Shown: positions 1 through 52,348, counted from the first letter of the stretch. The stretch: 64,000 bases of DNA from Gemmatimonadota bacterium (GCA_009838845.1 VXRD01000117.1:1-64000), one strand, 5' to 3'. Made by a program: numbers and translations. The notes: generated by a model from the sequence alone, not told the origin.

Positions 1-56
1 CGTCTATTCGTCTATTCGTCTATTCGTCTATTCGTCTATTCGTCTATTCGTCTATC
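1..56. repeat. Octamer tandem repeat CGTCTATT
   Basis: Six perfect copies of the 8-bp unit CGTCTATT fill 1-48, followed by a copy with a single change (CGTCTATC) at 49-56. The array runs off the left edge, so its full length is unknown. The TAG stop of the minus-strand sulfatase lies inside the array at 44-46. The same octamer (AATAGACG on the plus strand) recurs at 31869-31884 across the stop codon of an unrelated gene. Confidence 0.95.
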
Positions 57-1537
57 CGTTCACATTTTTCATTGAGGCGCTGTTCGGCATCGGTGCCGCG
101 CATTTGATGGGTGTGTGGGGCTATGCGAGGGGCTACGGTGGTGTATCCCCGGGCGTTTGGTCCCCTGCTTTTTGTTGTGCCTTCCAGGACGGTTTTGAGG
201 TCGGCGATGTCGCCGCGCCAGGATAAGAGGGCGTGGCGCAGTTCGTTGCGGATTTCTCGATGGTCCGGTTGGTGGTAGAGGTCGTTTTGTTCCTGGGGGT
301 CGTTGATGCGGTCAAATAGACGGCCTTCGTCTTCTTCAAAGAAGTAGGCGAGTTTCCAGCGTTTGGTGGCGACGGCGCAGGATTTGTAGAGGGTGGCAAC
401 GGCGCAGCGGCGGGGGGATTGTTCGCCTCTGGCGAGTGGGGTGAAGAGGTCGAATCCCTGCATGGAGGGGCATTCGGTGCCGGCAGCCGCGAGGAGGGTT
501 GTGGTGATGTCGTTCCAGATGGCGAAGTCTCGCGTTTCTCCTTGCGGGAGGGTGCCGGGCATGCTCATGATAAAGGGGACGCGCCAGGATTCATCGTAGA
601 AGTTGTGTTTGTCGTTAAAGCCGTGGTCGAAGAATTGCTGCCCGTGATCGGATGTGAAGATGATCAGGGTGTTTTCTCGGAGGTTATTCTGGTCGAGGTA
701 GTCCAGGATGCGACCGAGGAGGGCGTCGCAATACGCGGCATACGCATAATAGGTTTTGCGGAGTTCCATGATGGTGTCGCGGTATTGCGGGTCGTAGATG
801 CGGCCAATGGCTTCTCGCCAGTATTTGATGGTGTTTGGGTCTTCACCCGGATGGCATTCGTTTTCGGGTTTGATGCCGAGCAGGCGTTTGGTGTGTGTGG
901 GCTGGTTTTGTTCTTCGCGGTGGGTGTAATTGAGGTCGGGCAGGTTGTCGCAGTTGTCGTAAAAGGTGAGCCAGTCGCCCGGTGGACATTCGGGTGGATG
1001 CGGCGCGGGTAATGAGCAGAAGGCAAAGAAGGGACCCGAATCGCGCTTGACGACCTGGTCGATTTGTTCGATGGTTTGTTTGGCGAAAAAGGTGTCGAGA
1101 AAGTGTTCTTCGGGTACGGGTGTGGGCTGTTTGTGGCAGTCCTGGGGTGTGAATCCGTGTTTTGGGATGTATTCTCTGTAGTCGTCCTGACCGATGATGA
1201 TGTCGAAGGTGTCTGGGGTTTGTCCAAAGTGTTGTTTGCCGACCATGATGTTGGTGTAGCCCTGTTCTTTGAGGAGGTCGGGTAGGGTTGGGAAGTGGGT
1301 GAGGCGGGTCATGCCGTTTTCCCATACGCCGTGTATGGGGGTGTGCAGACCGGTGATGAGGCTGCTGCGCGAGGGGTTGCATACGGGTGAGGGCGTGTGT
1401 CCCTGTGCGAACATGACGCCTTCGGCTGCGAGGCGATCTGCGTGTGGTGAATGGGCAAACGAACTGCCCATGCAGTTGAGGGTGTCCCAGCGCTGGGTGT
1501 CTGTTGTGATGAGTAAGAGGTTGGGGCGTTCGGTCAT
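44..1537 (-). CDS. Type I sulfatase (alkaline phosphatase superfamily)
   Basis: The 497-residue product is a full-length type I sulfatase that hydrolyses sulfate esters. The start of the signature is CNPSR with Cys53, the residue converted to formylglycine in this family; metal-site residues appear in TTDTQRWD near residues 11-18 and in the TSDHG stretch near residue 300. No signal peptide is visible, so the enzyme is probably cytoplasmic. It lies 20 bp downstream of a second sulfatase on the same strand, with a TAAAGGAAC ribosome site, so the two are probably cotranscribed. The stop codon falls within an octamer repeat, giving the tail ERIDE. Substrate is unknown; no maturase gene is in the window. 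Confidence 0.93.
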   Translation of the reverse strand: MTERPNLLLITTDTQRWDTLNCMGSSFAHSPHADRLAAEGVMFAQGHTPSPVCNPSRSSLITGLHTPIHGVWENGMTRLTHFPTLPDLLKEQGYTNIMVGKQHFGQTPDTFDIIIGQDDYREYIPKHGFTPQDCHKQPTPVPEEHFLDTFFAKQTIEQIDQVVKRDSGPFFAFCSLPAPHPPECPPGDWLTFYDNCDNLPDLNYTHREEQNQPTHTKRLLGIKPENECHPGEDPNTIKYWREAIGRIYDPQYRDTIMELRKTYYAYAAYCDALLGRILDYLDQNNLRENTLIIFTSDHGQQFFDHGFNDKHNFYDESWRVPFIMSMPGTLPQGETRDFAIWNDITTTLLAAAGTECPSMQGFDLFTPLARGEQSPRRCAVATLYKSCAVATKRWKLAYFFEEDEGRLFDRINDPQEQNDLYHQPDHREIRNELRHALLSWRGDIADLKTVLEGTTKSRGPNARGYTTVAPRIAPHTHQMRGTDAEQRLNEKCERIDE

Positions 1538-1557
1538 GTGTGTTCCTTTAATGGAAG

Positions 1558-2880
1558 TTAGTACTGGCCCGAGAGGTCTGGAACGGTGAATTCGAAGCGT
1601 TCTTGGGCGTCTGAAAGCCGTTTTTGCATGTCGGCTACGCGATGGGCATAAGAGGGGTCGGCGATGGCGTTGGTGTATTCGTCGGGGTCGTTGACGAGGT
1701 CGTAATATTCGTCGCCTTCGCCTTCGCGGATGTAGTGGATGAGTTTTTCGGTTTGGGTTCTCAAGCAGACCATTGTTGGGAAATACGGATAGGGCGGGTC
1801 TTCGAAGTATTCGAAGAAGAGGTCTTGTCGAGGTATTTCGCCTGTGTTGGTCAGAAGTGGCCGCAGGGAGTGGCCGTGGTAGTGGTCGGGTACGCCGAGA
1901 CCGGATACGTCCATGATGGTTGCCGGGATGTCGAGGCTGATTACGTCGGTTTGTTCTACGCGACCGGGGTTGGCGATGAGGTCGGGATAGCGCATGAGAT
2001 AGGGTACGCGGATGGATGGGTCATACATCCAGCGTTTGTCGCCGAGGCCAAATTCGCCGTGGAAGTAGCCGTGGTCGCTGGTGTGTACGACGAGTGTGTT
2101 GTTGGTTTGTCCAATGGCGTCAATTTTGTCGAGTACCCGGCCCAGGGCATCATCTACGCCGCGCACGGTGCGCACGTAGTTGCGCATAAAGGTGTCGTAG
2201 CGTTCGTTGTCTCCGTAATTATACGGGCGTTCGCGAAGGGTTCTGGCTTTGCCATCGCGAGATGCGCCCAGGGCATTGGGTTTGGGTAGTTCGTCATCGG
2301 AATAGGCATTGGCATGACGCGGCGGTGGGGTGAAGGGTCCGTGAGGGGCTTTGTACCACAGGCAGATTGCCCAGGGGCGGTCGTCGTTTTGGTCGAGAAA
2401 TTGTTCGACGTAGTCGGCGAGGAGGTCGGTGTTATATCCCTGATGTTTGACTTCTTCACCGTCGATGATAAAGATCGGGTCTTCGTAGTCTCCCTGGCCG
2501 CGAAAGCTGACCCAGCGCTCAAAGCCGGGTTTGGGGTCGCCGCCGGGCAGGTCAATGCCTTCGGTTCCGTAGTGTATTTTTCCAAAGAAGCCCGTGCGAT
2601 ATCCGGCTTTTTGTAATTGCTCGGGCCATGTTACGAGGTCGGGGCGAATCGGTGCGCGATTGTGTGCTGCCCGGTGGGTGTGAGGATAAACACCGGAAAG
2701 ATGGCTGGCTCGGCTGGGCGCGCATAGGGGTATGGCGGTAAAGCCATTGGCAAAGCGGATGCCTTCACGGGCGAGGCGGTCCATAGCAGGTGTGTCGATG
2801 AAGGGATGTCCCGCACATCCCATGCAGTCGTGTCGCTGGTCGTCGCACATGGAAAAGAGGATGTTGGGTTGTCTGGTCAT
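1558..2880 (-). CDS. Type I sulfatase
   Basis: The 440-residue product carries the sulfatase signature CAPSR with Cys53 as the predicted formylglycine, the N-terminal metal-binding stretch MCDDQRHD (residues 11-18) and a distal HTSDHG motif. No signal peptide is seen. The ATG at 2880 has GGAGAT as ribosome site 5 nt upstream. This start is only 24 bp from the start of the divergent PhyH gene at 2905, so the promoters must lie within each other's 5' regions. The next gene downstream is another sulfatase, suggesting a two-enzyme desulfation unit. The specific sulfate ester is unknown. Confidence 0.93.
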   Translation of the reverse strand: MTRQPNILFSMCDDQRHDCMGCAGHPFIDTPAMDRLAREGIRFANGFTAIPLCAPSRASHLSGVYPHTHRAAHNRAPIRPDLVTWPEQLQKAGYRTGFFGKIHYGTEGIDLPGGDPKPGFERWVSFRGQGDYEDPIFIIDGEEVKHQGYNTDLLADYVEQFLDQNDDRPWAICLWYKAPHGPFTPPPRHANAYSDDELPKPNALGASRDGKARTLRERPYNYGDNERYDTFMRNYVRTVRGVDDALGRVLDKIDAIGQTNNTLVVHTSDHGYFHGEFGLGDKRWMYDPSIRVPYLMRYPDLIANPGRVEQTDVISLDIPATIMDVSGLGVPDHYHGHSLRPLLTNTGEIPRQDLFFEYFEDPPYPYFPTMVCLRTQTEKLIHYIREGEGDEYYDLVNDPDEYTNAIADPSYAHRVADMQKRLSDAQERFEFTVPDLSGQY

Positions 2881-2904
2881 TATGAATCTCCGGAAGGGGT
2901 TGGT

Positions 2905-3645
2905 ATGTCACTTTTAACAGCTAAAGATAAAGCTTTTTTTCAAGAAAATGGCTATCTCATTCGATACAATATGTTGAGTGAGGGTCAAATTCAAGGGGCG
3001 GTCGATACGCTTTGGCATTATATTGAAGCAGATCGCTATGATCCACAGACCTGGGTGGATGCAGGTCCGCGGAGTCCAGATTGTTGGGATCATCCCGCGA
3101 TTCGCGCAACGCTTTACGAAACGGATTTGTTTGCGATGTGCAGGGAACTGGCTGGCGATTTGAGCGATGATGCAGATCCTTCGACCATTCTGGTGTATCC
3201 CAGTGGCAGCGATGAGTGGGCGATCAAGTTACCACATCTGGATGGTTATAATAAGAGCGAGCAGGCAACCGTGGGGTTTACGATTGGTGTGACGGTTTAT
3301 CTGAGTGATGTGGCGCCGCGTGGCGGAGGTTTTACACTGTGGCCCGGTAGTCATAAGGCTGTTGCTGAATTTTTCAAGTCGCATTCCCTGCTGGGTCTCA
3401 ATATGCATCATCCCGGCGGCATTGTCGAGCGCGATATGGGCCGCATTTTCGATCTGAATGAACCTGTTGAGCTGGTCGGGCAGGCGGGTACTGCGTGTAT
3501 CTGGCACGGGTATATGGTTCACAGCGGTACGTCGAATTGCAGCGATCAGATACGGATGGCTCTGGTGAGTCGCATGAGTACAAAAAATTGGGATCTGTTG
3601 CAGTTTGAGACGCCGGATGATATGTGGGAATATTGGGAAGTGTGA
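2905..3645 (+). CDS. Phytanoyl-CoA dioxygenase (PhyH) family protein
   Basis: This 246-residue protein belongs to the Fe(II)/2-oxoglutarate-dependent PhyH family, which hydroxylates diverse small molecules. The iron-binding HxD is PHLDGY (His111, Asp113), the distal His is 206 in MVHSG and the 2-oxoglutarate Arg is probably Arg217. The reading frame is open further upstream, but ATG 2905 is chosen because GGAAGGGG lies just before it and homology to the paralog at 8022-8783 begins there. Both paralogs end with QFETPDDMWEYWE, showing a close duplication. It starts a run of PhyH genes and is divergent from a sulfatase gene. Confidence 0.9.
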   Translation: MSLLTAKDKAFFQENGYLIRYNMLSEGQIQGAVDTLWHYIEADRYDPQTWVDAGPRSPDCWDHPAIRATLYETDLFAMCRELAGDLSDDADPSTILVYPSGSDEWAIKLPHLDGYNKSEQATVGFTIGVTVYLSDVAPRGGGFTLWPGSHKAVAEFFKSHSLLGLNMHHPGGIVERDMGRIFDLNEPVELVGQAGTACIWHGYMVHSGTSNCSDQIRMALVSRMSTKNWDLLQFETPDDMWEYWEV

Positions 3646-5529: not shown

Positions 5530-5540
5530 AGGAGGTTGAT

Positions 5541-6434: not shown

Positions 6435-6516
6435 GTTGATGCGCAGGTGTAGTATTCTGGTGATGGAATCGGGAGAGGGTTTTCCACTCACACGGAGTTT
6501 TGAAAAGAGGATTGTT

Positions 6517-7371: not shown

Positions 7372-7373
7372 TG

Positions 7374-7960: not shown

Positions 7961-7967
7961 TGTTTTT

Positions 7968-7990
7968 ATGATATCATAATATGATATCAT
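7968..7990. promoter_or_regulatory. Doubled palindrome, probable hicAB operator
   Basis: Two identical copies of ATGATATCAT, itself a perfect palindrome, are separated by AAT (7968-7977 and 7981-7990). The site lies 7 nt upstream of the hicA start codon and 31 nt upstream of the divergent PhyH start. It also contains TATCAT/TATGAT strings able to serve as -10 elements. Autorepression by the RHH part of HicB is the expected role; it could also affect the divergent PhyH gene. Confidence 0.75.
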
Positions 7991-8021
7991 TGGCAAGTGT
8001 TTTGTATAGAGGGAGTGTTTC

Positions 8022-8783: not shown

Positions 8784-8804
8784 TGGGTACATTGGATACA
8801 AAGT

Positions 8805-9170: not shown

Positions 9171-9402
9171 AATATACCTCAATTGTTATTGTATCCTTTT
9201 CCCAATACCAGCACGCAACCCAATGATAGGCAATATGACAATGATATCTTTCTGCACCGAGTTTGCCATAGTTGGGCCAATCGTTTCTGATGGGCCCCTT
9301 GTCACGCAAATCTTCAACGAGATTGGCCATCTTTTTTTGAATTTGCTCAGGCATTTTTCGAATATTTCTGAGCAATTTTCTCTTGATGATGACGTTATAC
9401 AT
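9139..9402 (-). CDS. RelE/HigB-like toxin
   Basis: The 87-residue basic protein resembles RelE/ParE-fold translation-inhibiting RNases: an N-terminal helical part (KRKLLRNIRKMPEQIQKKM) followed by beta strands with KLGAERYHCHI and ITIEVYYAGSREN. In this family the C-terminal basic and aromatic residues contact mRNA on the ribosome. It is the first gene of a two-gene module with the Xre antitoxin and starts 6 nt downstream of a palindromic site. RelE versus HigB naming cannot be settled from sequence alone. Confidence 0.85.
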   Translation of the reverse strand: MYNVIIKRKLLRNIRKMPEQIQKKMANLVEDLRDKGPIRNDWPNYGKLGAERYHCHIAYHWVACWYWEKDTITIEVYYAGSRENAPY

Positions 9403-9408
9403 ATTAAA

Positions 9409-9431
9409 TTGTAACTATTTAATGGTTACAA
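9409..9431. promoter_or_regulatory. Palindrome, probable operator of the RelE/Xre module
   Basis: Inverted repeat TTGTAAC (9409-9415), nine-base spacer, GTTACAA (9425-9431). It lies just upstream of the toxin start codon at 9402 and 31 nt before the divergent sulfatase start at 9463. The position suits autorepression by the Xre antitoxin and possible co-regulation of the sulfatase operon. Confidence 0.65.
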
Positions 9432-9462
9432 GTCAAGTGGCAACCAATCCTGGAGCAATTTT

Positions 9463-10929: not shown

Positions 10930-10949
10930 GCGCTCTGGATGGAGGTGTT

Positions 10950-11423
10950 ATGTCAGAAAATAAGGATTGGCGAAATCAGGGGGTGCGGGTAGTGACGGGC
11001 GATCAGTTGGATTTTAATACGCCACAGACACCGGGGATGACCCGGGCGGCGGCGATTAATCGCGCGAGTGCAGGTGCTGAGAAGCTGTGGGCGGGGACGG
11101 TTGAGATTCATCCGAATGCAAAGACTGGCGCGCACCACCACGGGGCGCTGGAGAGTGTGATTTATGTGGTGAGCGGGAGGGCGCGTATGCGGTGGGGCGA
11201 TCAGTTGGAGTATATGGCAGAAGCGGGTCCGGGTGATTTTATTTATGTGCCGCCTTATGTGCCGCACCAGGAGATCAATGCCAGTGTGGATGAGTCTCTG
11301 GAGTGCGTGCTGGTGCGCAGCGATCAGGAGCCTGTGGTTGTGAATCTGGATATTCCAGTTGTTGAAGAGCCTGAGAAGGTGTATTGGGTGGATCCGATCC
11401 ATCCGGCTCCGAGAGATGATTAA
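10950..11423 (+). CDS. Cupin-domain protein
   Basis: The 157-residue protein is a single-domain cupin. Metal-binding residues of cupin motif 1 are visible in HPNAKTGAHHHGALESVIYV (about residues 51-70) and motif 2 in GPGDFIYVPPYVPHQEIN (about 92-109). Such proteins bind a small organic acid or act as isomerases or regulators. It begins 20 bp after the sulfatase and ends 23 bp before a dehydrogenase gene, so it is part of the same operon. A mannose-6-phosphate-isomerase-like or sensing role cannot be excluded. Confidence 0.87.
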   Translation: MSENKDWRNQGVRVVTGDQLDFNTPQTPGMTRAAAINRASAGAEKLWAGTVEIHPNAKTGAHHHGALESVIYVVSGRARMRWGDQLEYMAEAGPGDFIYVPPYVPHQEINASVDESLECVLVRSDQEPVVVNLDIPVVEEPEKVYWVDPIHPAPRDD

Positions 11424-11446
11424 CATTTAGCATTTGAAGAGGTGAG

Positions 11447-12349
11447 ATGGTGAAACGAAAATTGGGATATGTGGGGCTTGGGATGATGGGTGGTGGGATG
11501 GCGAGTCATTTGGTTGCGAGTGGCTATGATGTTGCGGTTCACGATTTGCGCGATGAAGCGGTTCAGGTTTTGCAGGAGAAGGGGGCAACGGGGGTGAATA
11601 CGCCCCGGGCGGTTGCCGAGCAGTCGGAGGTTGTTATTTCTTCGCTGCCGACGCCACAGGCTGTTGAGCAAGTCGCTTTGGGACCGGATGGTATTGTTTC
11701 CGGGTTGTCGGAGGGGCAGGTTTATATTGATATGAGTTCGATTGACCCGGATACGACGCGCAAGGTTGGCAGGATTATAGCGGAAAAGGGCGGGTATATG
11801 CTGGATGTGCCCGTGGGCAAGGGGCCGGCAGATGCGGCACGGGGTGGATTGACGCTGATGATTGGCGGCGATGCCGATGTGGTGGCGTCCGTGCAAGATG
11901 TGCTGGATACTCTGGGCGATGAGCAGTTTTATTGTGGTGAGTTGGGCATGGGTGTGACGACTAAGCTGGTCAATAATCTGGTGTCGTGTTCGGTTGCTAC
12001 GCTGTTGGGTGAGGCTTTTGCGATGGGTGCTGCCGCGGGATTGGATGTGGGTGTGTTGTGGAATGTGATGTCGAATACGGCTGCAAATTCGTCGCATTTG
12101 CAGGGGAGTTTTAAGCGCCGCGCCCTGGTGCGAAATTTTGATCCCTATTTTAAGCTGAGATTGTCGCATAAGGATCTCGGGTTGGCTGCACAGATGGCCG
12201 CTTCACTGGGGGCGACAAATTTGATGGGCGCAGCTGCGTATCAGATTCAGACTATAGCGATGGGGATGGGGTTGGGCGATGAAGATCAGACAGCGTCGAT
12301 TAAGGTGGCGGAGAAGACTGCGGGGGCTGAAGTGAGAAGGGTGAAGTGA
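11447..12349 (+). CDS. 3-hydroxyisobutyrate dehydrogenase-family oxidoreductase
   Basis: The 300-residue product is a beta-hydroxyacid dehydrogenase. The N-terminal NAD(P)-binding Rossmann motif is GYVGLGMMGGGMA, followed by SSLPTPQAVE. The substrate motif appears as DVPVGKGPADAARGGLTLM (usual form DAPVSGG), and the catalytic-Lys region is GMGVTTKLVNNLV. The C-terminal helical domain is complete. It would oxidise a 2- or 3-hydroxyacid, possibly one made by the PhyH enzymes downstream. The ATG at 11447 follows GAAGAGG. The gene end carries a short GTGAGAAGG repeat. Confidence 0.9.
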   Translation: MVKRKLGYVGLGMMGGGMASHLVASGYDVAVHDLRDEAVQVLQEKGATGVNTPRAVAEQSEVVISSLPTPQAVEQVALGPDGIVSGLSEGQVYIDMSSIDPDTTRKVGRIIAEKGGYMLDVPVGKGPADAARGGLTLMIGGDADVVASVQDVLDTLGDEQFYCGELGMGVTTKLVNNLVSCSVATLLGEAFAMGAAAGLDVGVLWNVMSNTAANSSHLQGSFKRRALVRNFDPYFKLRLSHKDLGLAAQMAASLGATNLMGAAAYQIQTIAMGMGLGDEDQTASIKVAEKTAGAEVRRVK

Positions 12350-12362
12350 GAAGGGTGAAGGT
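12329..12362. repeat. GTGAGAAGG tandem-like repeat at gene end
   Basis: GAAGTGAGAAGGGTGAAG occurs twice in near tandem across the stop codon of the dehydrogenase gene. It is related in composition to GAAG-rich strings at 3640-3670 and 15628-15660. No function is assigned. Confidence 0.6.
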
Positions 12363-12395
12363 GCGGGGAGTACTTCAAAGAAAAGGAGAACAAAG

Positions 12396-13256
12396 ATGCC
12401 AGTTTTGAGCGAGAAGGATTGGGATTTTTGGCGGGAGAATGGGTATGTGGTGGTACACAATGCGGTGCCGCAGGAAAATTTGGATGCGATGGTGGATACG
12501 GTCTGGACATTTTTGGAGATGGATCGCGATAATCCGGAGGATTGGTACAAGTACAAACCCTATACGCGCGGGAATCCGTGTTCGATGATTGCGGCATCGG
12601 GGATGGTGGAGATTTACCAGCATCAGGCGTTGTGGGATAACCGGCAGTATCCCCGCTTGCATCAGGCGTTTTCCGAAATTTGGGGTACGGAGAAGTTGTG
12701 GGTGTCCCTGGATCGCGCGAATATGAAGCCGCCTTCGCGGGCGGATAAACCCGATTGGCAAAATGAGGGCATGATTCACTGGGATACGGATACGTCTGTG
12801 CCCAAAGTGCCTTTTGGGGTGCAGGGGGTGTTGTATTTGACGGATACTTCGGAGGATCAGGGCGGGTTTCAGTGTGTGCCTGGGTTTAATAATATTTTTG
12901 AGGAGTGGGTCAAGACGCAGCCAGAGGATCGCGATCCCAGGCGGCCCAATCTGGATGATCTGGAAGTGAAGTCGATTCCGGGCAGGGCGGGCGATCTTTT
13001 GATCTGGCATCGGTTGCTGGCACACGGCAATGGGCACAATCGCTCGGATAGGCCCCGTCTGGCGCAGTATATTACGATGTCGCCAGCAGAGGGTCGGGGA
13101 GAGGCAGAGCGGGAAGAGCGCATTCAGGCATGGCGAGCGTGCAGGCCCACGCCCCGCTGGCCGGGTGATCCGAGGGATTGGGAACACAAGACGCAGGAGC
13201 CAGCGAAGTTGACGGAATTGGGGAAGAAGTTGTTGGGTTTGACGTCGTGGAATTGA
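12396..13256 (+). CDS. Phytanoyl-CoA dioxygenase (PhyH) family protein
   Basis: The 286-residue product has iron ligands in MIHWDTDTS (His128, Asp130) and a distal His210 in LLAHGNGHN, with Arg221 probably binding 2-oxoglutarate. ATG 12396 is well supported by AAAGGAG 9 nt upstream. The extended C-terminus (residues about 229-286) is rich in Arg, Trp and Pro and differs from the other PhyH copies. It is the first of three consecutive PhyH genes in the operon, with 20- and 10-bp gaps. Family clear, substrate unknown. Confidence 0.9.
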   Translation: MPVLSEKDWDFWRENGYVVVHNAVPQENLDAMVDTVWTFLEMDRDNPEDWYKYKPYTRGNPCSMIAASGMVEIYQHQALWDNRQYPRLHQAFSEIWGTEKLWVSLDRANMKPPSRADKPDWQNEGMIHWDTDTSVPKVPFGVQGVLYLTDTSEDQGGFQCVPGFNNIFEEWVKTQPEDRDPRRPNLDDLEVKSIPGRAGDLLIWHRLLAHGNGHNRSDRPRLAQYITMSPAEGRGEAEREERIQAWRACRPTPRWPGDPRDWEHKTQEPAKLTELGKKLLGLTSWN

Positions 13257-13276
13257 ATGGCTAATGGAGGAATCCC

Positions 13277-14038
13277 ATGGGTGTTTTGACGGAGGCGCAA
13301 CGCGCGCAATACGAAAGAGATGGGTATCTTCTGGCGTCGGGTTTGATTCCAGAGGATGTGGCAGAACGAGCAGAAGCGGCGATGTGGCGGATTATGGGTA
13401 TGGTGCCAGATGATCCAGAGACCTGGCATCGAGAACCCGAAGGTGTTGCTGGTTTTCAGGTTGCGCGGGGATTGTCTGTATTTAACGGTCTTCGAGATCG
13501 GGATTTGATGGCCTGTGTAACGCCGCACTATTTGAAGGCGACGGCTGAGTTGGTCGGCGAAGATGACGTGCATCCACCTGAAGCGGTTCACACGCAGAAT
13601 AAAGTTCCGGTCAATGGGGAGTGGTCTTTGCCCAGGGCGCACGTTGATGGCATTCCCAGGGAACACATGCACGAGACGTTTCCCGGTCCTTATCGCATTG
13701 CGAGTCTGGTGTTTTTGAGCGATGTGAAACACAAGGGGGGTGGGACGGCGGTTTTTCCGGGATCGCATCGCAAGATTCTCGCGCTTGCAGAGTCGGATCG
13801 AGAAAAGTACAAATATCTGTTTCATCTGAACCGGGATATTCCCGGGCTGGAGTTGGGCGATCCGATTGAGTTGACGCCAAAACGCGGGGATGTGTTGTTT
13901 TTTACGTATTTATTTGGACACAATGGCACGGCAAATGTGGGTGGGCGTCCGCGCTGGATGATGCGGTATTTTTGCTCTTGCCAGGAATGTCAGACCCGCT
14001 GGAAGAAGACGGAAGATTGGGGTCTGTGGTCACCGTGA
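13277..14038 (+). CDS. Phytanoyl-CoA dioxygenase (PhyH) family protein
   Basis: This 253-residue PhyH protein has HxD in RAHVDGIP (His122, Asp124), distal His215 in FGHNGTAN and Arg226 in GGRPRW. ATG 13277 follows a GGAGG ribosome site. The C-terminus has two nearby Cys residues (FCSCQECQ), which could bind a metal or form a disulfide; this is unusual among the paralogs here. It is the second of three adjacent PhyH genes that are too different from one another to be recent duplicates, suggesting successive oxidations. Confidence 0.9.
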   Translation: MGVLTEAQRAQYERDGYLLASGLIPEDVAERAEAAMWRIMGMVPDDPETWHREPEGVAGFQVARGLSVFNGLRDRDLMACVTPHYLKATAELVGEDDVHPPEAVHTQNKVPVNGEWSLPRAHVDGIPREHMHETFPGPYRIASLVFLSDVKHKGGGTAVFPGSHRKILALAESDREKYKYLFHLNRDIPGLELGDPIELTPKRGDVLFFTYLFGHNGTANVGGRPRWMMRYFCSCQECQTRWKKTEDWGLWSP

Positions 14039-14048
14039 GGAGCATGTG

Positions 14049-14825
14049 ATGGAATTGACGAAGTCTCAGAAGTTGGAATTTTACAGCGAAGGGTTTTTGA
14101 AAATTGAAGGTGCTGTGCCAGGCGTGATGGTGGAGGCGGCGCGGCAGACGATTAATGCGGAGATTGGGAAGGGCGACAGGCGCTCTTTTGGAGATATTCG
14201 CGCGATGCCGGTGATTACGGATATGTTTAATGAGACGCCGGCGTTTCCATTGCTCGAATCGGCTTTGGGCAAGGGGAATTTGCAACGCCAGGGCCACGGT
14301 GCTGTGAAGCTGAATTTTCCCGCGCCGGTTGGGACGCCGCAACGGGATCCCCAACTCGCGACTGCGGGTCCGCCATTGCGAACGGGTGGGCATCTGGATG
14401 GGATTGCAAAGGCGCGCGATTTTTTGAGGGGGACGGCTGAAGAGAGCGGGTATAGTCGGGATTTTACGGCTTTTGCTGTGGTGTATCTGGATGATGTGCC
14501 CGCGTCGTATTGCGGCAATTTTACGGTTTGGCCAAAGTCACACCATGTGATGGAGGATGTGTTTCGAGAAAGAGGGCATGAGATTTTGTTGAATTATATG
14601 CCCGATGTGACGGTGCCCGAGGGGCCGGTGCAGTTGACCGGCGAGCCTGGCGATCTTATTCTGGCGCATCATCAGATTATTCACACGGCGGCGATTAATG
14701 CGTGTCCAGATATCCGGTATGCCGTGATTTTCAGAGCAAGGCATGTAGACATAAAAAAGAATGGCAAGGATGTGTTTATGGATATTTGGCGGGAGTGGGA
14801 TGGGATTAGAGCGGAGATTGGATAA
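14049..14825 (+). CDS. Phytanoyl-CoA dioxygenase (PhyH) family protein
   Basis: The 258-residue product has HxD in GGHLDGIA (His115, Asp117), distal His212 in IIHTAAIN and Arg223 in DIRYAV. ATG 14049 is chosen because the preceding gene's stop region supplies GAGG at 8 nt spacing; a GTG at 14046 is also possible. It lies 10 bp after the second PhyH and 12 bp before the SDR gene, so translational coupling along the operon is likely. Substrate unknown. Confidence 0.9.
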   Translation: MELTKSQKLEFYSEGFLKIEGAVPGVMVEAARQTINAEIGKGDRRSFGDIRAMPVITDMFNETPAFPLLESALGKGNLQRQGHGAVKLNFPAPVGTPQRDPQLATAGPPLRTGGHLDGIAKARDFLRGTAEESGYSRDFTAFAVVYLDDVPASYCGNFTVWPKSHHVMEDVFRERGHEILLNYMPDVTVPEGPVQLTGEPGDLILAHHQIIHTAAINACPDIRYAVIFRARHVDIKKNGKDVFMDIWREWDGIRAEIG

Positions 14826-14837
14826 ACGGAGTGTGAG

Positions 14838-15626
14838 ATGGATTTGGGATTGAGAGGAAAAAGGGCGGTTGTTACGGGTGGCAGTCAGGGGATTGGACGT
14901 TGCTGCGCGCTGGCGTTGGCGCGGGAAGGGGCGCGTGTGTGTATTGCGGCGCGCACACAGGAGACTTTGGATGCGGTGGTTGCCGAGATCGATGCAGCAG
15001 GTGGAGAAGGGCATGCGGTTGCGGTCGATTTGATGCGGGGAGAGAATTGCGAGGTGGTGGTGAATGAGGCTATAGGTGCGTTTGGGGGCGTGGATGTTCT
15101 GGTCAATAATGTGGGGGCTGCGCGCAATGCCGATATTTTGGATTTAGATGTGGCGCAGATTAGCGAGGCGTTGGAATTGAAGAGCTATAGTTATTTGCGG
15201 ATGGCGCAACTGGTGATTCCGCTGATGCGGGAAAGTGGATGGGGGCGCATTGTCAATGTCGCGGGTGGCGCGGGTACGAGTCCTACGCGGGGCAATATTC
15301 CGACGGGGGCGGCCAATGCGGTCATTTTGAATATGACGCGCGCGCTGTCCGATGCGGTGTCTGGCGATGGTATTCTGGTGAATGCGGTTTGCCCGGGGTT
15401 GACCAATACGCCTCGGGCACGTTCGCAACAAAGGGCGCGGGCAGACCGCGAGGGGCGAGATGTCGAGGCGGTGCTCAAAGACCTGGGTGCGGAGTTGCCC
15501 GCCGGACGCATGGCCGAGCCTGAAGAGATCGCCAGTGTGGTTGCTTTTTTAGCGTCTGAGGCGTGTTCTTATGTGTTTGGTAGTTCGATTTATATGGATG
15601 GTGGTGGGAGAAGAGGGATGCCGTAG
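14838..15626 (+). CDS. Short-chain dehydrogenase/reductase lacking the Tyr-Lys motif
   Basis: The 262-residue protein has a complete SDR Rossmann fold: TGGSQGIG (residues 13-20), NNVG (90-93) and the C-terminal PAGRMAEPEEIASVVAFLAS and YMDGGG. The catalytic region is altered. Where YxxxK is expected there is TGAAN (Thr156, Asn160), and the active-site Ser position reads VAGGAG. Cofactor binding looks intact. It may be a divergent SDR class with another mechanism or a non-catalytic partner. It is the last gene of the sulfatase-PhyH operon. Confidence 0.9.
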   Translation: MDLGLRGKRAVVTGGSQGIGRCCALALAREGARVCIAARTQETLDAVVAEIDAAGGEGHAVAVDLMRGENCEVVVNEAIGAFGGVDVLVNNVGAARNADILDLDVAQISEALELKSYSYLRMAQLVIPLMRESGWGRIVNVAGGAGTSPTRGNIPTGAANAVILNMTRALSDAVSGDGILVNAVCPGLTNTPRARSQQRARADREGRDVEAVLKDLGAELPAGRMAEPEEIASVVAFLASEACSYVFGSSIYMDGGGRRGMP

Positions 15627-46171: not shown

Positions 46172-46182
46172 GACAATTGACG

Positions 46183-47394
46183 ATGTCACATTCTGGCCTC
46201 ACCCGCAGTGTTCGATTGTATCCGATTTATGCCCCTCTCGCGCAGGCGTACTTCTGGTTGCCTGTCTTTTTTCTCTATTTCAACCAGCACATGCCCATTG
46301 AGCAGGTGCTGCGCCTCGAAGCTATTTACTATGTCGCCGTTGTTATTCTCGAAGTGCCTTCCGGGTATTTGTCCGATATCCTGGGTCGCCGTCTGACCCT
46401 TCTAATTTCTGCTGTTTCAGCAATTTTTGCGTACGCTCTCTTTTTTGCGGGTGGGTCTTTTGACGTTTTTGTGCTGGCGCAAATTGGTTTGGCTGCAAGT
46501 ATGGCCTTTCGATCTGGCACGGATACGTCGTTTCACTACGATCTGCTCAAATGTTTGGGGCGAGAAGACGCCTATCCCCAGCGCGAAGCGCGCATTACGC
46601 GGAATGTTTTTATTGCTTCAGCAGGTGCCGCGCTTCTTGGGGGTGTAGGCTCTATCTATGCTTTGCGCGTTGCTTATGGTTTTTCTTTTTTAACGGCGTG
46701 CGTGGCTTTTGTGCTGGTTTTGTTATTTGCCGAACCCGACCGGGAGCCCAGTTCTGAGCGACAGGCGTCGGGTTTTTTTCCCCAGATTCGCGCCTGTCTC
46801 GCGTATCTCAGCCAGCCCGTGCTCGGGTGGTTGATGTTGTTTTCCGTTTTTATGACGGTTGTCAATCATATCCCCTATGAATTTTATCAACCCTATATCC
46901 AGTTGCTCGGTGCCCAGGCTCCCACGCCGTTGCTTACGGGTTTACATACGGCGCTGACGATGGGTATTGCCGCGTGGTTTGCAAAACAGAGTATTCGCCT
47001 GCGCGATCATTTCGGTACCCGGTCAGCACTTATGCTCAGTGCAGGGGTGCAGGTTGTTCTCATTTCATTGATGGGGTTCTTTTTTCACCCTGTTGTTGCG
47101 CTTTTGTTGGCTTTCCGGTCTGTCCCTCGCGCGCTTATGATTGCGCCTCTCAATGCTGCGACTGTGCCGCGTTTGCAACAATACCATCGCGCGACATATC
47201 TTTCGATCCAGAGTCTGATTGGGCGTTTGTCATTTTCGCTTTGTCTTGCTCTTCTCGCTGGTGTTTCAGAAGGTTCGGATATTGGGCTGTCGCATACGCT
47301 TTTGCACTGCGCGGTCTTTGCCATTGCGGGGTGTGTCGTTCTCGCTGTTCTCGCTGTTGTGATTCCCAGGTCGCAGTGGCGATTGACGAATTAA
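46183..47394 (+). CDS. Major facilitator superfamily transporter
   Basis: The 403-residue product is a polytopic inner-membrane protein with roughly 12 hydrophobic segments. The MFS loop 2-3 motif reads GYLSDILGRRLTLL (about residues 58-71), the typical GxLsDrxGRR signature. ATG 46183 is chosen over an in-frame TTG at 46177. It follows a terminator and precedes a sulfatase operon by 82 bp, so it could import the sulfated substrate, but this is only positional. Substrate unknown. Confidence 0.88.
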   Translation: MSHSGLTRSVRLYPIYAPLAQAYFWLPVFFLYFNQHMPIEQVLRLEAIYYVAVVILEVPSGYLSDILGRRLTLLISAVSAIFAYALFFAGGSFDVFVLAQIGLAASMAFRSGTDTSFHYDLLKCLGREDAYPQREARITRNVFIASAGAALLGGVGSIYALRVAYGFSFLTACVAFVLVLLFAEPDREPSSERQASGFFPQIRACLAYLSQPVLGWLMLFSVFMTVVNHIPYEFYQPYIQLLGAQAPTPLLTGLHTALTMGIAAWFAKQSIRLRDHFGTRSALMLSAGVQVVLISLMGFFFHPVVALLLAFRSVPRALMIAPLNAATVPRLQQYHRATYLSIQSLIGRLSFSLCLALLAGVSEGSDIGLSHTLLHCAVFAIAGCVVLAVLAVVIPRSQWRLTN

Positions 47395-47476
47395 AAATTA
47401 AAAGTCAGGGTTTGGGAACTGAGAGATTGAGTGGTTAGGCGGACTGACCGCTGACTGCTGATTGCTGGAGGTTTTG

Positions 47477-48928
47477 ATGATGAACTCATTTCTTAGAAAA
47501 CCGAATTTGTTATTTATTTTTACCGATCAACAGCGCGCGGATACGATGCGGTGTTATGGCAATGATCATATTGATACGCCGCATCTCAATACGCTTGCGG
47601 ATAAGAGTTTTGTCTTTGAGAATGCCTATGTCAGCCAGCCCGTGTGCAGTCCCTCGCGTGCCACGATGTTGTGCGGTCTCTACCCGCATACCGCGCGCGT
47701 GCCAGCGTGCAATGTTCCGTTGCCTCGAGATGTGCAAACCATTGCGGAGATGGTGTCTTCGGATTATCGCTGTTGTTATAATGGCAAGTGGCATCTCGGC
47801 GATGAAATTTTTCCGCAGCACGGTTTTTCCGAGTGGGTTGGTACCGAGGATTCGTATCGTCGCTTTTTTTCGAGTTCTGAACGCCATGCATACCGCAGTA
47901 CCTACCATCATTTTCTCGTGGAAAATGGTTTTGATCCCAATTCCGAATCCGAAGGCCAGCGCGTTTTTTCCCGCCACGTTGAAGCGAGTATGGATGAACC
48001 GTTTACCAAGGCGTCTTTCCAGGGCGACCGCGCTGCCCAATTTATACGCGCCTGTGGCGATGATCCCTTTGTGCTGGCTGTTTCTTATCTGGAGCCGCAC
48101 CCACCGCATACCGGCCCATTAAACGATTATTACGATCCTTCAGAACTTCCCGTTGGTCCCGCGTTTCGCCAGAAGCCGCCGGCTAATGCGTCTCTTCTCA
48201 ATCGCGTTTTGTCCGCTTATTATATGGAGTCCGAAGAATACGGTTACGATCTTCGCACAGATGAGGGCTGGCGTGCTGTTCGCGCGCGCTATTATGGCAA
48301 TGTTACGTTGATTGATCGCTCTGTTGGCAAGATTCTCGCTGCGCTCGAGGAGAGCGGGCAGGCGGATAATACGATTATTGTGTTTACCAGTGATCACGGC
48401 GAGATGGTGGGTGATCACGGCATTTTGGGGAAGACTGTTTTGTACGAGGAGTCCGTCAAGGTTCCGCTTCTCATGCATGTGCCCTGGTTATCCGATCAGC
48501 AGCGTGTGATCGGGGGGAATATTTCACATATTGATCTCGTGCCTACGCTTCTGGATTTGATGGGTGAATCCATTCCCGATCATTTGCAGGGTGAGAGCCG
48601 CGTGTCCGCGCTGGATGGCGATGCGACACTATTGGAGAATGATGTTTTTATTCAGTGGAACCGCAATGATGGACATCCGCGTCCCGGTGAGGCTGAGGTC
48701 AATCCCGCTATGAGTACGCCCTGGCGATCTATCATCTCTGCCGAACGCTGGAAACTCAATCTCAGCGCGCACGATCAGTGCGAACTATACGATCTGAACG
48801 CCGATCCATACGAAACTGTCAATTATTTCGACGATCCCAAATGCAGAGATCGTATTCGAGACCTGACCGAGCGTATTCGTCAATGGCAGATGCAGACAGA
48901 TGATAGAGTTCTGTTGCCTGAGATTTAG
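47477..48928 (+). CDS. Type I sulfatase
   Basis: The 483-residue protein is a type I sulfatase with CSPSRATMLCG (Cys57 predicted as formylglycine), the metal stretch FTDQQRAD (about residues 15-22), GKWHLG and a distal FTSDHGE. GGAGG 5 nt before ATG 47477 decides the start over an in-frame TTG at 47462. No signal peptide. It leads a three-gene operon with a PhyH and a 2-hydroxyacid dehydrogenase (gaps 13 and 30 bp), paralleling the larger operon at 9463-15626. Confidence 0.93.
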   Translation: MMNSFLRKPNLLFIFTDQQRADTMRCYGNDHIDTPHLNTLADKSFVFENAYVSQPVCSPSRATMLCGLYPHTARVPACNVPLPRDVQTIAEMVSSDYRCCYNGKWHLGDEIFPQHGFSEWVGTEDSYRRFFSSSERHAYRSTYHHFLVENGFDPNSESEGQRVFSRHVEASMDEPFTKASFQGDRAAQFIRACGDDPFVLAVSYLEPHPPHTGPLNDYYDPSELPVGPAFRQKPPANASLLNRVLSAYYMESEEYGYDLRTDEGWRAVRARYYGNVTLIDRSVGKILAALEESGQADNTIIVFTSDHGEMVGDHGILGKTVLYEESVKVPLLMHVPWLSDQQRVIGGNISHIDLVPTLLDLMGESIPDHLQGESRVSALDGDATLLENDVFIQWNRNDGHPRPGEAEVNPAMSTPWRSIISAERWKLNLSAHDQCELYDLNADPYETVNYFDDPKCRDRIRDLTERIRQWQMQTDDRVLLPEI

Positions 48929-48941
48929 AAGGAGGTTTGTC

Positions 48942-49790
48942 TTGTTTACCAAGCGAGAACAATTTGCCCGTGATGGGTTCTATGTGTTCGAGGATATTCT
49001 CGATTCTTCTCTGGTGGATCGATTGCAGCGCCTTAGCGATGATGTACTCTCGGAACAGGAGCCGGAGCATTTTGAGATGCATCGCACGACCGGGAGTATG
49101 GTCATGATCGATTGGGCTATGGCTTATCAGTATCCGGTTATGGCTGCACTCATCGCCCATCCCAATGCGCTCAATGCGTTGAAACAGCTCGGGTTTGATG
49201 AACCAAAGTTTGGGCATGGACGCATTATCAGTAAGCCGCCGCATAGTCCACCGCTGTTCTGGCATGAAGATGGTCGTTTTTGGGATGATCCGGTAAGCTA
49301 TACGACGCAGCCCATTCAGTGCTTTTTGATGTATTATCTGACCGATACGATACCGCAAAATGGGTGTTTGCGCGTGGTCCCGGGATCGCATCTCAAGCGT
49401 CATTCATTACACGACGAGATTTCTCCGAGCCATACAGATGAGCTAAGAAAATTTGCCGATCCGGACGATCCGGGGTTTTCGCGGGTGGATGATGAGATCG
49501 ATGTTCCCGTTAAAGCCGGCGATCTCGTGATGGGTTATGGCAGTCTGTTGCACGCTTCGCATGCGAATCAGACAGATCAGCGCAGGACTGTGCTCACGAT
49601 GTGGTACTATCCGGACTTTGTCGCTTTGCCCGAGCGCACACAGGCTACGGTCGCTCTGGCAGAAGGCAATAACAGTGATGCTGTGTCATCGTCTGAGTTA
49701 CAGGCTCTGATGGAGCCGCTTAGAATCTCGTATGATGGCGAGGCAGAGCCGATAGAGATACAGTGGATACCGGGTGAGGGGTTGAAGTGA
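48942..49790 (+). CDS. Phytanoyl-CoA dioxygenase (PhyH) family protein
   Basis: The 282-residue product begins at TTG 48942, chosen because AAGGAGG lies 6 nt upstream and the start falls cleanly 13 bp after the sulfatase stop; an ATG-type frame from 48900 would overlap the sulfatase. Iron ligands are in FWHEDGRF (His108, Asp110) and LLHASHAN (His204), with Arg214/215 nearby. Product of the PhyH step would be a hydroxylated intermediate for the dehydrogenase that follows. Substrate unknown. Confidence 0.9.
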   Translation: MFTKREQFARDGFYVFEDILDSSLVDRLQRLSDDVLSEQEPEHFEMHRTTGSMVMIDWAMAYQYPVMAALIAHPNALNALKQLGFDEPKFGHGRIISKPPHSPPLFWHEDGRFWDDPVSYTTQPIQCFLMYYLTDTIPQNGCLRVVPGSHLKRHSLHDEISPSHTDELRKFADPDDPGFSRVDDEIDVPVKAGDLVMGYGSLLHASHANQTDQRRTVLTMWYYPDFVALPERTQATVALAEGNNSDAVSSSELQALMEPLRISYDGEAEPIEIQWIPGEGLK

Positions 49791-49820
49791 GAAGATGCCC
49801 AATTTGAAAAGAGGTTAGTT

Positions 49821-50858
49821 ATGCCAAAAGTCCTTCTCGCGTCTAATAAGCGCGTCCGAGATAGCTATTTTCCGCCGGCAGAACTCGCCCGTCTCGAGAC
49901 CTTTGCCACATGGGATTGGTTTGAGTGCGAGGGTGGCAATATTTATGAAGCCCATCGCGACCCCGGAATTATTGCGGGTTTAATTGATTGTATTGGGGAT
50001 GCGGATGCTGTTGTCGTGTGCTCCGGGTGCCCCAAGATCGATGCCGAGGTGCTGGATAATGCGCCAAATTTGAAGTTGGTTGGCGAATTGGAAGGCGACC
50101 GCTTTGCCGCGCGCATTGATCTCGATGCTGCCTGGGAACGCGGTATCCGCACGGTTGATACGACTCAGGGGTCGTCTTATCCAGTTGCCGAATGGGCGCT
50201 CGCGCTTATCCTGATCGCGTTGCGCAATGCAGGGGCGGCTTTTCGCCGCATTATCGCTGGCGATACCATTGGTGCTAAGAACCGCGATATGCGCGGTATG
50301 TTGACCGACAAGCGCGTGGGTCTTATTGGGTGTGGGCATATGGGCCGCCGTCTCATTTCTTTTTTGCGTCCTTTTAATACGGATATCTGGGTTTATGATC
50401 CGTATTTGTCCCGCGATATTGCCGAGATTGTGGGTTTTACGCAGACTTCGATGGATAAGATTTTTGCGGAATGCGATGTTATTGTCTGCGTTGCCCCGCT
50501 TACACCGCGCACCAGAGGTATGATTGGGAAACGCGAACTCGATCTCATCCAACCCGGGTCGGCTTTTGTCAATGTTTCGCGCGGCGCGATTGTCGATTCA
50601 AATGCTTTGATCGAACGCCTCAAGAGAGGAGATATTACCGCGGGTCTCGAGGTTTTTGATCCGGAACCTATTCCCCCCGATAGTGAGATTATTCACCTTC
50701 CCAATGTGTTTTTAAGTCCGCATTTTTCGGGCCATACGGGCGATGATTATCCCCACTTTTTCAAACTTATGGTCGATGAACTCGATCGCTTTTTTCAGGG
50801 CCATGAGACGTGGTTTGATCTCACGCCACAATCGCAGGCCAATCGCAGAGGCGACTGA
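49821..50858 (+). CDS. D-isomer-specific 2-hydroxyacid dehydrogenase
   Basis: The 345-residue protein has the NAD(P)-binding segment VGLIGCGHMGRRLISF, the Arg-containing NVSRGAIVDSNAL, the Glu region AGLEVFDPEPIP and the catalytic His in LSPHFSGHTGD. This order is standard for the family (phosphoglycerate or hydroxypyruvate reductase-like). It is the last gene of the sulfatase-PhyH operon, 30 bp after PhyH. It would interconvert a 2-hydroxyacid and 2-oxoacid. Exact substrate unknown. Confidence 0.92.
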   Translation: MPKVLLASNKRVRDSYFPPAELARLETFATWDWFECEGGNIYEAHRDPGIIAGLIDCIGDADAVVVCSGCPKIDAEVLDNAPNLKLVGELEGDRFAARIDLDAAWERGIRTVDTTQGSSYPVAEWALALILIALRNAGAAFRRIIAGDTIGAKNRDMRGMLTDKRVGLIGCGHMGRRLISFLRPFNTDIWVYDPYLSRDIAEIVGFTQTSMDKIFAECDVIVCVAPLTPRTRGMIGKRELDLIQPGSAFVNVSRGAIVDSNALIERLKRGDITAGLEVFDPEPIPPDSEIIHLPNVFLSPHFSGHTGDDYPHFFKLMVDELDRFFQGHETWFDLTPQSQANRRGD

Positions 50859-50916
50859 TTGCTTTTTCAAGTTTCGCGTTTTGGGTATATTTAAATCAAC
50901 TATATTGGGAGATGTT

Positions 50917-51306
50917 ATGTTTCGCCTCTTTCTCGCAACTGTCTGCGTCATTTTGATGGCTTGCCAGAATTCACCAGAACAGAAAGCCGAACCACCCCCT
51001 CAGCGCCCGCAATTTACCGCGGCAGATATTGAAAAGGGGAAGGCTCTGTACACAAAATACGGGTGCGCGGTTTGCCATGGTCGCAACGGTCATGGCAATG
51101 GTCAGATCGCGCGTACTCTGAATCCAAGGCCCCGCGATTTTCACGATCCAAAGGTTTATAAATACGGGCGTTCGGTTGAGGCTGTTTCGCGTACGATACT
51201 TAAGGGCGCGCTCAATGAACGGGGCATGGGTATGCCCGGCTATCCCCAAATCCCGGAGGAAGAACGCAGGGTTATTTCCATTTTTATTGTTTCGCTGCAG
51301 AAATGA
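50917..51306 (+). CDS. c-type cytochrome lipoprotein
   Basis: The 129-residue protein has a lipobox ILMAC (Cys16) and a single heme-binding motif CAVCH (Cys50, Cys53, His54), with the axial Met probably in GMGMPGY. It is a membrane-anchored monoheme class I cytochrome c. ATG 50917 is chosen because TTGGGAG precedes it and the signal peptide starts there. It overlaps the following PCuAC gene by ATGA, so it is the first of a copper and electron-transfer operon. Confidence 0.9.
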   Translation: MFRLFLATVCVILMACQNSPEQKAEPPPQRPQFTAADIEKGKALYTKYGCAVCHGRNGHGNGQIARTLNPRPRDFHDPKVYKYGRSVEAVSRTILKGALNERGMGMPGYPQIPEEERRVISIFIVSLQK

Positions 51307-51758
51307 GATTGTGTATAAAAAGTGGGATATTTTTTCTGACCCTGATTCTGCTTGGGATGGGATGCAGTGATCGGGATATTTCTTCTGTTTCCATTAAAAA
51401 CGCATGGGTGCGGCAGAATATTCCGCGTCAGACGATGACTGCGGCTTATTTGGCTATTCACAATCGCGGTGCTGCAACTGCGCTCATTTCTGCTTCTACG
51501 CCTGCGGCTGAGGTTGCCGAGATTCACGTTATGACGACGGATGGCAATATTATGCGTATGAAAAAAATTGACCGTTTGCCGATTCCAGAAGATGGTTCAG
51601 CGACTTTGCAGCCGGGGGGTAACCATCTCATGCTTATCGGTCTCAGACGCGATTTGGCTCCGGACGATTCTCTTGCGCTTACGCTCACTTTTGCAAATGG
51701 TCAGGTGGAGACAGTTCGAGCACCTGTTGTTTCTTTTCGGAGTGAAGGGCGCAGATGA
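51303..51758 (+). CDS. PCu(A)C-family copper chaperone lipoprotein
   Basis: The 151-residue protein has a lipobox LGMGC (Cys21) and the copper site EIHVMTTDGNIMRM followed by GGNHLMLIGL, the H-M-H-M pattern of PCu(A)C proteins that carry Cu(I) to cytochrome oxidase Cu(A). It overlaps both the upstream cytochrome gene and the downstream Sco gene by 4 bp. The oxidase itself is not in the window. Confidence 0.91.
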   Translation: MRLCIKSGIFFLTLILLGMGCSDRDISSVSIKNAWVRQNIPRQTMTAAYLAIHNRGAATALISASTPAAEVAEIHVMTTDGNIMRMKKIDRLPIPEDGSATLQPGGNHLMLIGLRRDLAPDDSLALTLTFANGQVETVRAPVVSFRSEGRR

Positions 51759-52348
51759 ATACGATCCGCAGTACAGGTTTAGCTACTTTGCTGTTGCTAT
51801 TTATGGCCTGTAAACCGCTTGAGCGCACGCCGCAGTCCGATCCCGATCTCACCCTTTCTGCCGATCCCTTTCCTTTTGGCGGCGATTTGACGCTTGTTGA
51901 TCACGATGGCAATTCTTTCCATTTGGCAGATCAACAGCGTCCGTTTCTTCTCTTTTTTGGCTATGCGAGTTGTCCCGATGCGTGTCCTCAAACGATGGCG
52001 CGGCTTGCGAGTGCTTATACGATTTTAGGCGAGGATGCACGCGATCTCAGGACGCTTTTTGTGAGTGTTGATCCCGGGCGCGATTCACCCGAAATGCTCA
52101 AATCTTATTTGTCGCATTTTGACGTGCCAGCTATTGGTCTTACAGGGGCGCGGGATAGTATTGATGCGGTGGTTAAGCGCTATGCCGCTCATTATGAGGT
52201 TGGCGAGCAGGGTTCTGCGGCGGGGTATCTTATCGACCATTCCCTCTATACCTATCTCATTGACCAGAACGGCGATTTGCGCTTCTTTTTTCGCTCGTCT
52301 CACACTGCCGAAGAAATCGCGACTGTGGTTCGTCAATTGTCCAAGTAG
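51755..52348 (+). CDS. Sco1/SenC-family copper delivery protein
   Basis: The 197-residue thioredoxin-fold protein has a lipobox FMAC (Cys19), the copper/redox motif CPDAC (Cys73, Cys77) and the conserved His162 in DHSLYTYLI. Sco proteins assemble the Cu(A) centre of cytochrome c oxidase or keep its thiols reduced. It is the last of three overlapping genes. A perfect 12-bp palindrome begins 58 bp after its stop. Confidence 0.93.
   Translation: MNTIRSTGLATLLLLFMACKPLERTPQSDPDLTLSADPFPFGGDLTLVDHDGNSFHLADQQRPFLLFFGYASCPDACPQTMARLASAYTILGEDARDLRTLFVSVDPGRDSPEMLKSYLSHFDVPAIGLTGARDSIDAVVKRYAAHYEVGEQGSAAGYLIDHSLYTYLIDQNGDLRFFFRSSHTAEEIATVVRQLSK

What the first reader, a model, noticed from the sequence alone, without database searches (positions are those of the whole stretch)
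47477..50858. Second sulfatase-PhyH-dehydrogenase operon with the same functional order
A sulfatase, PhyH and D-2-hydroxyacid dehydrogenase lie within 13 and 30 bp of one another. A further sulfatase pair faces a PhyH at 44-3645. The same three activities recur at three sites with non-orthologous members, arguing for a general strategy rather than chance.
Basis: partly seen in the sequence, partly recalled or inferred. Interest (0 to 1): 0.62.

Follow-up and report, generated by a model that had tools for sequence, protein, structure and literature searches.

The report
Conserved sulfatase-dehydrogenase pair, swappable middle gene
In a group of uncultured marine Latescibacterota, a sulfate-removing enzyme and an NAD-linked dehydrogenase stay side by side across genera, while the gene between them (here a PhyH oxygenase) comes and goes, so the oxygenase looks like an optional add-on and not the heart of a three-step pathway.

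Summary
In detail: sulfatase (47477-48928), PhyH (48942-49790) and D-2-hydroxyacid dehydrogenase (49821-50858) lie in one direction, 13 and 30 bp apart. The claim that the same three activities recur at three sites in the window is wrong in detail: 44-3645 has no dehydrogenase, and 9463-13256 has a 3-hydroxyisobutyrate-type one. In a closed congener genome, 28 of 150 sulfatases have a PhyH within 700 bp, against 9.3 expected from abundance and 13.1 regionally. A sulfatase/Gfo-Idh control shows no excess, and neither does a closed genome from another family. The excess is real but limited to some lineages, and sulfatase-adjacent PhyHs are scattered over the PhyH tree. At this locus the PhyH is not the core. 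The sulfatase-dehydrogenase pair is adjacent and same-strand in 22 of 25 genomes that carry both, in either order. The slot between them holds PhyH, a signal peptidase, both, or nothing, with at least 3 changes each within one genus. The PhyH looks horizontally shared. Best reading: a cytosolic "unmask a hydroxyl by desulfation, then oxidise it" pair, analogous to BetC/BetA, with PhyH as an interchangeable accessory. Substrate unknown.

The parts
46177..47394 (+). MFS transporter, first gene of the conserved block in the genus
   Evidence: Pfam MFS_1 8e-14; a 77-98% identical neighbour was found upstream of the sulfatase in all ten congeners examined
47477..48928 (+). S1-type (formylglycine) sulfatase with SGSH_C domain, no obvious signal peptide
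   Evidence: Pfam, ncbifam below choline-sulfatase cut-off, N-terminus MMNSFLRKPNLLFIF begins at the catalytic core
47645..47659 (+). C-S-P-S-R formylglycine (catalytic) motif of the sulfatase
   Evidence: read from the translation
48929..48935 (+). AAGGAGG ribosome-binding site before the TTG start of PhyH
   Evidence: sequence printed
48942..49790 (+). PhyH-family Fe(II)/2-oxoglutarate dioxygenase; variable insert in the slot between sulfatase and dehydrogenase
   Evidence: Pfam 2.6e-22; H108, D110, H204, R215 invariant in 12 homologues; slot polymorphism
49821..50858 (+). D-isomer-specific 2-hydroxyacid dehydrogenase, partner of the sulfatase; SRG, DPEP, SPHFSG motifs present
   Evidence: Pfam 3.8e-45, motifs, adjacency to sulfatase in 22 of 25 genomes
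44..3645 (.). two sulfatases (minus) facing a PhyH (plus); no dehydrogenase

Best explanation
The functional core at 46177-50858 is a cytosolic two-enzyme module, sulfatase plus NAD-dependent D-2-hydroxyacid dehydrogenase, fed in this genus by a neighbouring MFS transporter. Proposed mechanism: a small sulfated metabolite is imported, the formylglycine sulfatase removes the sulfate and frees a hydroxyl, and the dehydrogenase oxidises the resulting D-2-hydroxy acid to a 2-keto acid for central metabolism, as BetC and BetA do for choline-O-sulfate. The PhyH dioxygenase is an optional cassette in the slot between the two genes, probably acquired horizontally. It would hydroxylate or O-demethylate substrate variants so that they enter the same route. 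Shown: gene families, catalytic motifs, conserved pair, variable slot, absence of an obvious signal peptide on the sulfatase, phylogenetic discordance of PhyH. Inferred: import by the MFS protein, order of reactions, substrate class, role of PhyH.
For: Sulfatase (>=60% identical) and DH (>=57%) are adjacent and same-strand in 22 of 25 relatives that carry both, in SULF-DH order in 14 and DH-SULF order in 8. Gaps are mostly 11-64 bp where the slot is empty (counted by hand). Exceptions are G011, G028 and G035. The slot in 11 congeners: PhyH in 4, signal peptidase S26 + PhyH in 1, S26 alone in 2, empty in 4, with at least 3 parsimony changes each for PhyH and S26 on the tree of the flanking genes. 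G010's empty slot looks like a deletion across a TTGCC/TGCC microhomology. PhyH is 84-85% identical to homologues in G037/G042/G046 of another family, whose SULF and DH are only 62-69% identical, and the PhyH tree groups them (99%) to the exclusion of same-family G011/G012. Their PhyH neighbourhoods contain no sulfatase. FGly motif and DH motifs intact. Nearly all sulfatases sampled start at the catalytic core without a signal peptide. In PMC12442346 the bet genes for choline-O-sulfate and choline catabolism are clustered, and the R. pomeroyi cluster is split by inserted unrelated genes.
Against: No substrate is known and no biochemistry was done. Related DHs in other genera sit beside Gfo/Idh, M24 or other genes and not a sulfatase, so the DH may be a generalist. 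Genome-wide, the D-2-HADH-to-sulfatase excess is weak: 7/18 within 4 kb against 3.1, P=0.03. The MFS match is to a broad superfamily, with its best ncbifam hit an efflux-type family below cut-off, so import is not shown. Signal peptides were judged by eye and simple rules, not by a trained predictor.
Confidence: 0.55

Rival explanations
1. One reading: a fixed three-step sulfatase-PhyH-dehydrogenase strategy, repeatedly assembled from non-orthologous parts.
For: Sulfatase-PhyH adjacency is 3.0-fold over abundance and 2.1-fold over a local null in G007. Other SULF-PhyH-(ThuA)-DH sets with 22-29% identical members occur at C105 and G007:4129904. Adjacent PhyHs are polyphyletic.
Against: Triads with D-2-HADH are not significantly enriched (P=0.24; same-strand P=0.066). 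PhyH is absent from the slot in 17 of 22 conserved pairs. The DH is missing from the own-genome orthologue of the G007 triad (L125 vs L126). No excess in G046.
Confidence: 0.2
2. Only abundance and general catabolic islands: so many sulfatases and PhyHs (over 150 each in 5.75 Mb) that neighbours arise by chance or by regional clustering.
For: Window-only test is not significant. PhyH and sulfatase densities are very high. In G046 adjacency equals expectation.
Against: In G007 adjacency beats both the rotation null and the local-jitter null (P<=0.001), and an equally catabolic family (Gfo/Idh) shows no excess with sulfatases within 700 bp. The SULF-DH pair is conserved across genera.
Confidence: 0.15
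3. The slot is a neutral insertion site and neither PhyH nor signal peptidase has anything to do with the flanking enzymes; the PhyH is a passenger.
For: A signal peptidase, metabolically unrelated, occupies the same slot in three congeners. PhyH orthologues elsewhere have other neighbours (molybdopterin oxidoreductase, nucleoside transporter, PALP enzyme, creatininase-like). Horizontal signature.
Against: The PhyH reading frame is intact, with its own Shine-Dalgarno and conserved iron ligands in five species. Genome-wide, PhyHs do sit next to sulfatases more than expected.
Confidence: 0.3

Closest known systems
bet cluster, choline-O-sulfate catabolism (BetC sulfatase, BetA choline dehydrogenase, BetT transporter)
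   Same: Sulfatase that exposes a hydroxyl, dehydrogenase that oxidises the product, transporter nearby; cluster reported to be split by unrelated inserted genes in Ruegeria pomeroyi (PMC12442346).
   Different: Sulfatase scores 216 bits against a choline-sulfatase cut-off of 433. Dehydrogenase is a D-2-hydroxyacid dehydrogenase, not a GMC choline dehydrogenase; no betI or betB here.
PhyH (PF05721) expansion of Poribacteria
   Same: PhyH genes are a remarkably large share of the genome (over 1.9% of genes in Poribacteria, PMC3909097); members highly diverse and mostly of unknown function.
   Different: The section of that paper read here does not discuss sulfatase neighbours, and 'sulfatase' does not occur in its main text. 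This is Latescibacterota.
PHYHD1-like 2'-O-methyl nucleoside demethylases
   Same: Same PF05721 fold; PHYHD1 is among the best structural matches of the PhyH model (3obz); a Poribacteria member is active (PMC12709175).
   Different: Only 16-17% identity to PHYHD1 in the structural alignment, and the fold does not tell substrates apart.
Marine sulfatase-rich polysaccharide degraders (PAUC34f, Poribacteria, Latescibacteria, Kiritimatiellae)
   Same: Large sulfatase repertoires; PAUC34f and Poribacteria are enriched relative to Latescibacteria (PMC7081726).
   Different: The sulfatases sampled here nearly all lack signal peptides, and no glycoside hydrolase or lyase was recognised beside this pair.

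Membership tests
Formylglycine (S1) sulfatase | C/S-x-P-x-R maturation motif in an alkaline-phosphatase-superfamily fold | tested here: met
   CSPSR at 47645-47659; PF00884 3.1e-51
Choline-sulfatase (BetC, TIGR03417) | score over the curated cut-off of 433 bits | tested here: not met
   215.7 bits
PhyH Fe(II)/2OG dioxygenase | HxD...H iron ligands and 2OG-binding Arg | tested here: met
   H108, D110, H204, R215 invariant in 12 homologues; matches to solved Fe/2OG dioxygenases
D-2-hydroxyacid dehydrogenase | GxGxxG nucleotide motif plus catalytic Arg, Glu, His | tested here: met
   GCGHMG at residue 170, SRG at 253, DPEP at 280, SPHFSG at 299; PF02826 3.8e-45
Phosphoglycerate dehydrogenase / glyoxylate reductase equivalogs | score over the ncbifam cut-off | tested here: not met
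   PGDH 165 of 454, glyoxylate reductase 140 of 455 bits
   met in G007 (28 vs 9.3 and 13.1), not met in G046 (3 vs 2.0 and 3.2)
Sulfatase-PhyH-D-2-HADH triad as a recurrent unit | triads more frequent than expected | tested here: not met
   2 vs 0.94, P=0.24; same-strand P=0.066
Sulfate-ester unmask-and-oxidise pathway | sulfatase product is the substrate of the dehydrogenase | not testable with these tools
   needs enzyme assay

The most novel reading that the evidence does not exclude
The lineage carries a modular intracellular economy for sulfated small molecules: conserved sulfatase-dehydrogenase cores with an interchangeable middle cassette into which oxygenase genes from a large, horizontally shared PhyH pool are plugged, so that each species tailors which decorated substrates it can use.
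Probability: 0.2. Interest if true: 0.65.

Novelty: new variant of a known kind. Interest (0 to 1): 0.42.

Why it matters
PhyH genes are extraordinarily abundant in these uncultured marine lineages and almost all lack a known role. This work puts a number on one partner preference (sulfatases, in one genus) and shows that at the locus studied the stable unit is sulfatase plus dehydrogenase, with PhyH optional. The congeners with and without PhyH form a ready natural comparison for finding the substrate. The apparent lack of export signals argues that many sulfatases in such genomes handle imported small molecules and not external polysaccharides, which would change how sulfatase counts are read.

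Tried and rejected
Literal repetition of three activities in the window: rejected after Pfam/ncbifam. Chance alone: rejected for sulfatase-PhyH in G007, retained for G046 and for triads. Co-duplication of ancestral sulfatase-PhyH pairs: disfavoured, because adjacent PhyHs are scattered on the tree; L153/L161 may be one exception. Structure of the PhyH (mean pLDDT 79) and Foldseek: only generic 2OG-dioxygenase matches (SnoN, PHYHD1, HygX, SptF, H11), no substrate hint. Literature searches for sulfatase together with PhyH or D-2-HADH clusters found no paper in the held library. First DH/SULF tree had a frame error in the outgroup and was redone without it.

Full report
OBSERVATION. Pfam identifies a sulfatase with an SGSH_C domain, a PhyH and a D-isomer-specific 2-hydroxyacid dehydrogenase. 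The sulfatase stop at 48928 is followed after 13 bp by the TTG start of PhyH, which has AAGGAGG six bases upstream; PhyH ends at 49790, 30 bp before the dehydrogenase ATG. The comparison sites do not hold up as stated. At 44-3645 there are two sulfatases and a PhyH but no dehydrogenase. At 9463-13256 the order is sulfatase, cupin, 3-hydroxyisobutyrate-type dehydrogenase, PhyH, with a further PhyH following. The window holds 4 sulfatases and 9 clear PhyHs among about 50 genes. All four sulfatases have a PhyH within three genes, which is not surprising (2.8 expected, P=0.26).

WHERE IT COMES FROM. The window is contig C117 of a 5.75-Mb assembly. Near-identical loci carry the names Latescibacteria/Latescibacterota in public records. 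The genome holds more than 150 sulfatases and more than 150 PhyHs, both lists being capped. High PhyH counts are known from Poribacteria (PMC3909097), and sulfatase enrichment from PAUC34f and Poribacteria (PMC7081726).

I used the closed congener G007 (6.53 Mb). Of 150 sulfatases, 28 have a PhyH within 700 bp: 9.3 expected when PhyH positions are rotated round the genome, and 13.1 expected when they are jittered 6-20 kb locally (both P=0.0005). Of 32 pairs, 29 are on one strand, with either gene first about equally often. As a control, sulfatase to Gfo/Idh gives 6 against 6.3. In G046, a closed genome of another family in the class, the value is 3 of 36 against 2.0. Triads that include a strong D-2-hydroxyacid dehydrogenase number 2 against 0.94 expected (P=0.24; same strand P=0.066). 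Hand annotation adds a third, more spread-out set at C105. Sulfatase-adjacent PhyHs are scattered over the PhyH tree (21 changes, shuffled mean 23.6, 86 of 500 shuffles as low). So the association is real in this genus, recurrent and not one ancient pair, but not shown to be general, and it does not extend firmly to the dehydrogenase.

THE LOCUS ITSELF. Orthologues tell a different story from the title. The block MFS-sulfatase-dehydrogenase is kept in all congeners examined. The slot between sulfatase and dehydrogenase holds PhyH in G000, G001, G004 and G007; signal peptidase S26 plus PhyH in G003; S26 alone in G002 and G009; and nothing in G005, G006, G008 and G010. PhyH and S26 each need at least three changes on the tree of the flanking genes. 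G010's junction fits a deletion between TTGCC/TGCC repeats. Beyond the genus, sulfatase and dehydrogenase homologues are neighbours on one strand in 22 of 25 genomes with both (congeners included), 14 in SULF-DH and 8 in DH-SULF order (counted by hand; in G009 the two lie on a short contig read in L059). Conservation of linkage through a reversal of order is strong evidence of a working pair.

THE PHYH HAS ITS OWN HISTORY. It is 84-85% identical to homologues in three genomes of another family, whose sulfatase and dehydrogenase are only 62-69% identical to those here. The PhyH tree groups them (99%) to the exclusion of same-family genomes. None of the eight PhyH homologue neighbourhoods inspected outside the genus contains a sulfatase (some are cut short by contig ends); their neighbours include a molybdopterin oxidoreductase, a nucleoside transporter and a PALP-type enzyme. 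The simplest reading is horizontal transfer into, or within, this group.

MECHANISM. Shown: the formylglycine motif CSPSR, the dehydrogenase signature residues and the PhyH iron ligands are intact, and the sulfatase begins directly at its catalytic core with no obvious signal peptide. The same holds for nearly all of the 46 sulfatase sequences sampled from the own genome and G007, one clear exception being a Tat-like leader in L144 (judged by eye and simple rules). Inferred: a small sulfated compound is imported, desulfated, and the freed hydroxy acid oxidised to a keto acid. The choline-O-sulfate bet pathway works this way and its cluster too can be split by inserted genes (PMC12442346), but this sulfatase is not a choline sulfatase by its curated cut-off. 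PhyH may pre-process variants, by hydroxylation or O-demethylation as shown for PHYHD1-like enzymes (PMC12709175), or may be a passenger. The structure model does not decide between these.

LIMITS. Family lists were capped near 150 scored hits, so counts are lower bounds. Nulls used base-pair distance and not a full gene table. G000 and G007 are congeners and not independent. Assemblies other than G007, G008, G037 and G046 are fragmented. No enzyme activity has been shown.

Noticed in passing
window 1-15626: A dense cluster of 3 sulfatases, 7 clear PhyHs plus one weak PhyH-like gene (14046-14825), an alpha/beta hydrolase, cupin, 3-HIBDH-type enzyme and SDR.
   Followed up: partly
L058:7087-7986, L059:214-1158, L130:1862-2761: A type I signal peptidase (S26) gene sits inside a metabolic gene block of some congeners, next to or instead of PhyH.
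   Followed up: partly
L125 vs L126: A second SULF-PhyH pair has a D-2-hydroxyacid dehydrogenase downstream in G007, followed by a GH4-family gene, but in the window's own genome the dehydrogenase is absent while its neighbours remain.
   Followed up: partly
own genome and G007, 46 sulfatases in sampled loci: Nearly all sulfatases lack a recognisable signal peptide; L144 has a Tat-like leader.
   Followed up: partly
G046: PhyH-rich (126) but sulfatase-poor (about 36) genome: PhyH expansion is not tied to sulfatase number.
   Followed up: no
L121:5578-8392, L122:5355-7210: PhyH genes directly beside a D-2-hydroxyacid dehydrogenase without a sulfatase.
   Followed up: no
window 50743-52348: Next to the dehydrogenase on the same strand lie three ORFs (50743-51306 overlaps the dehydrogenase end, 51303-51758, 51755-52348) that read like a c-type cytochrome, a copper chaperone and a SCO1-like protein; identified from the translation only. 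The first is conserved in congeners.
   Followed up: no
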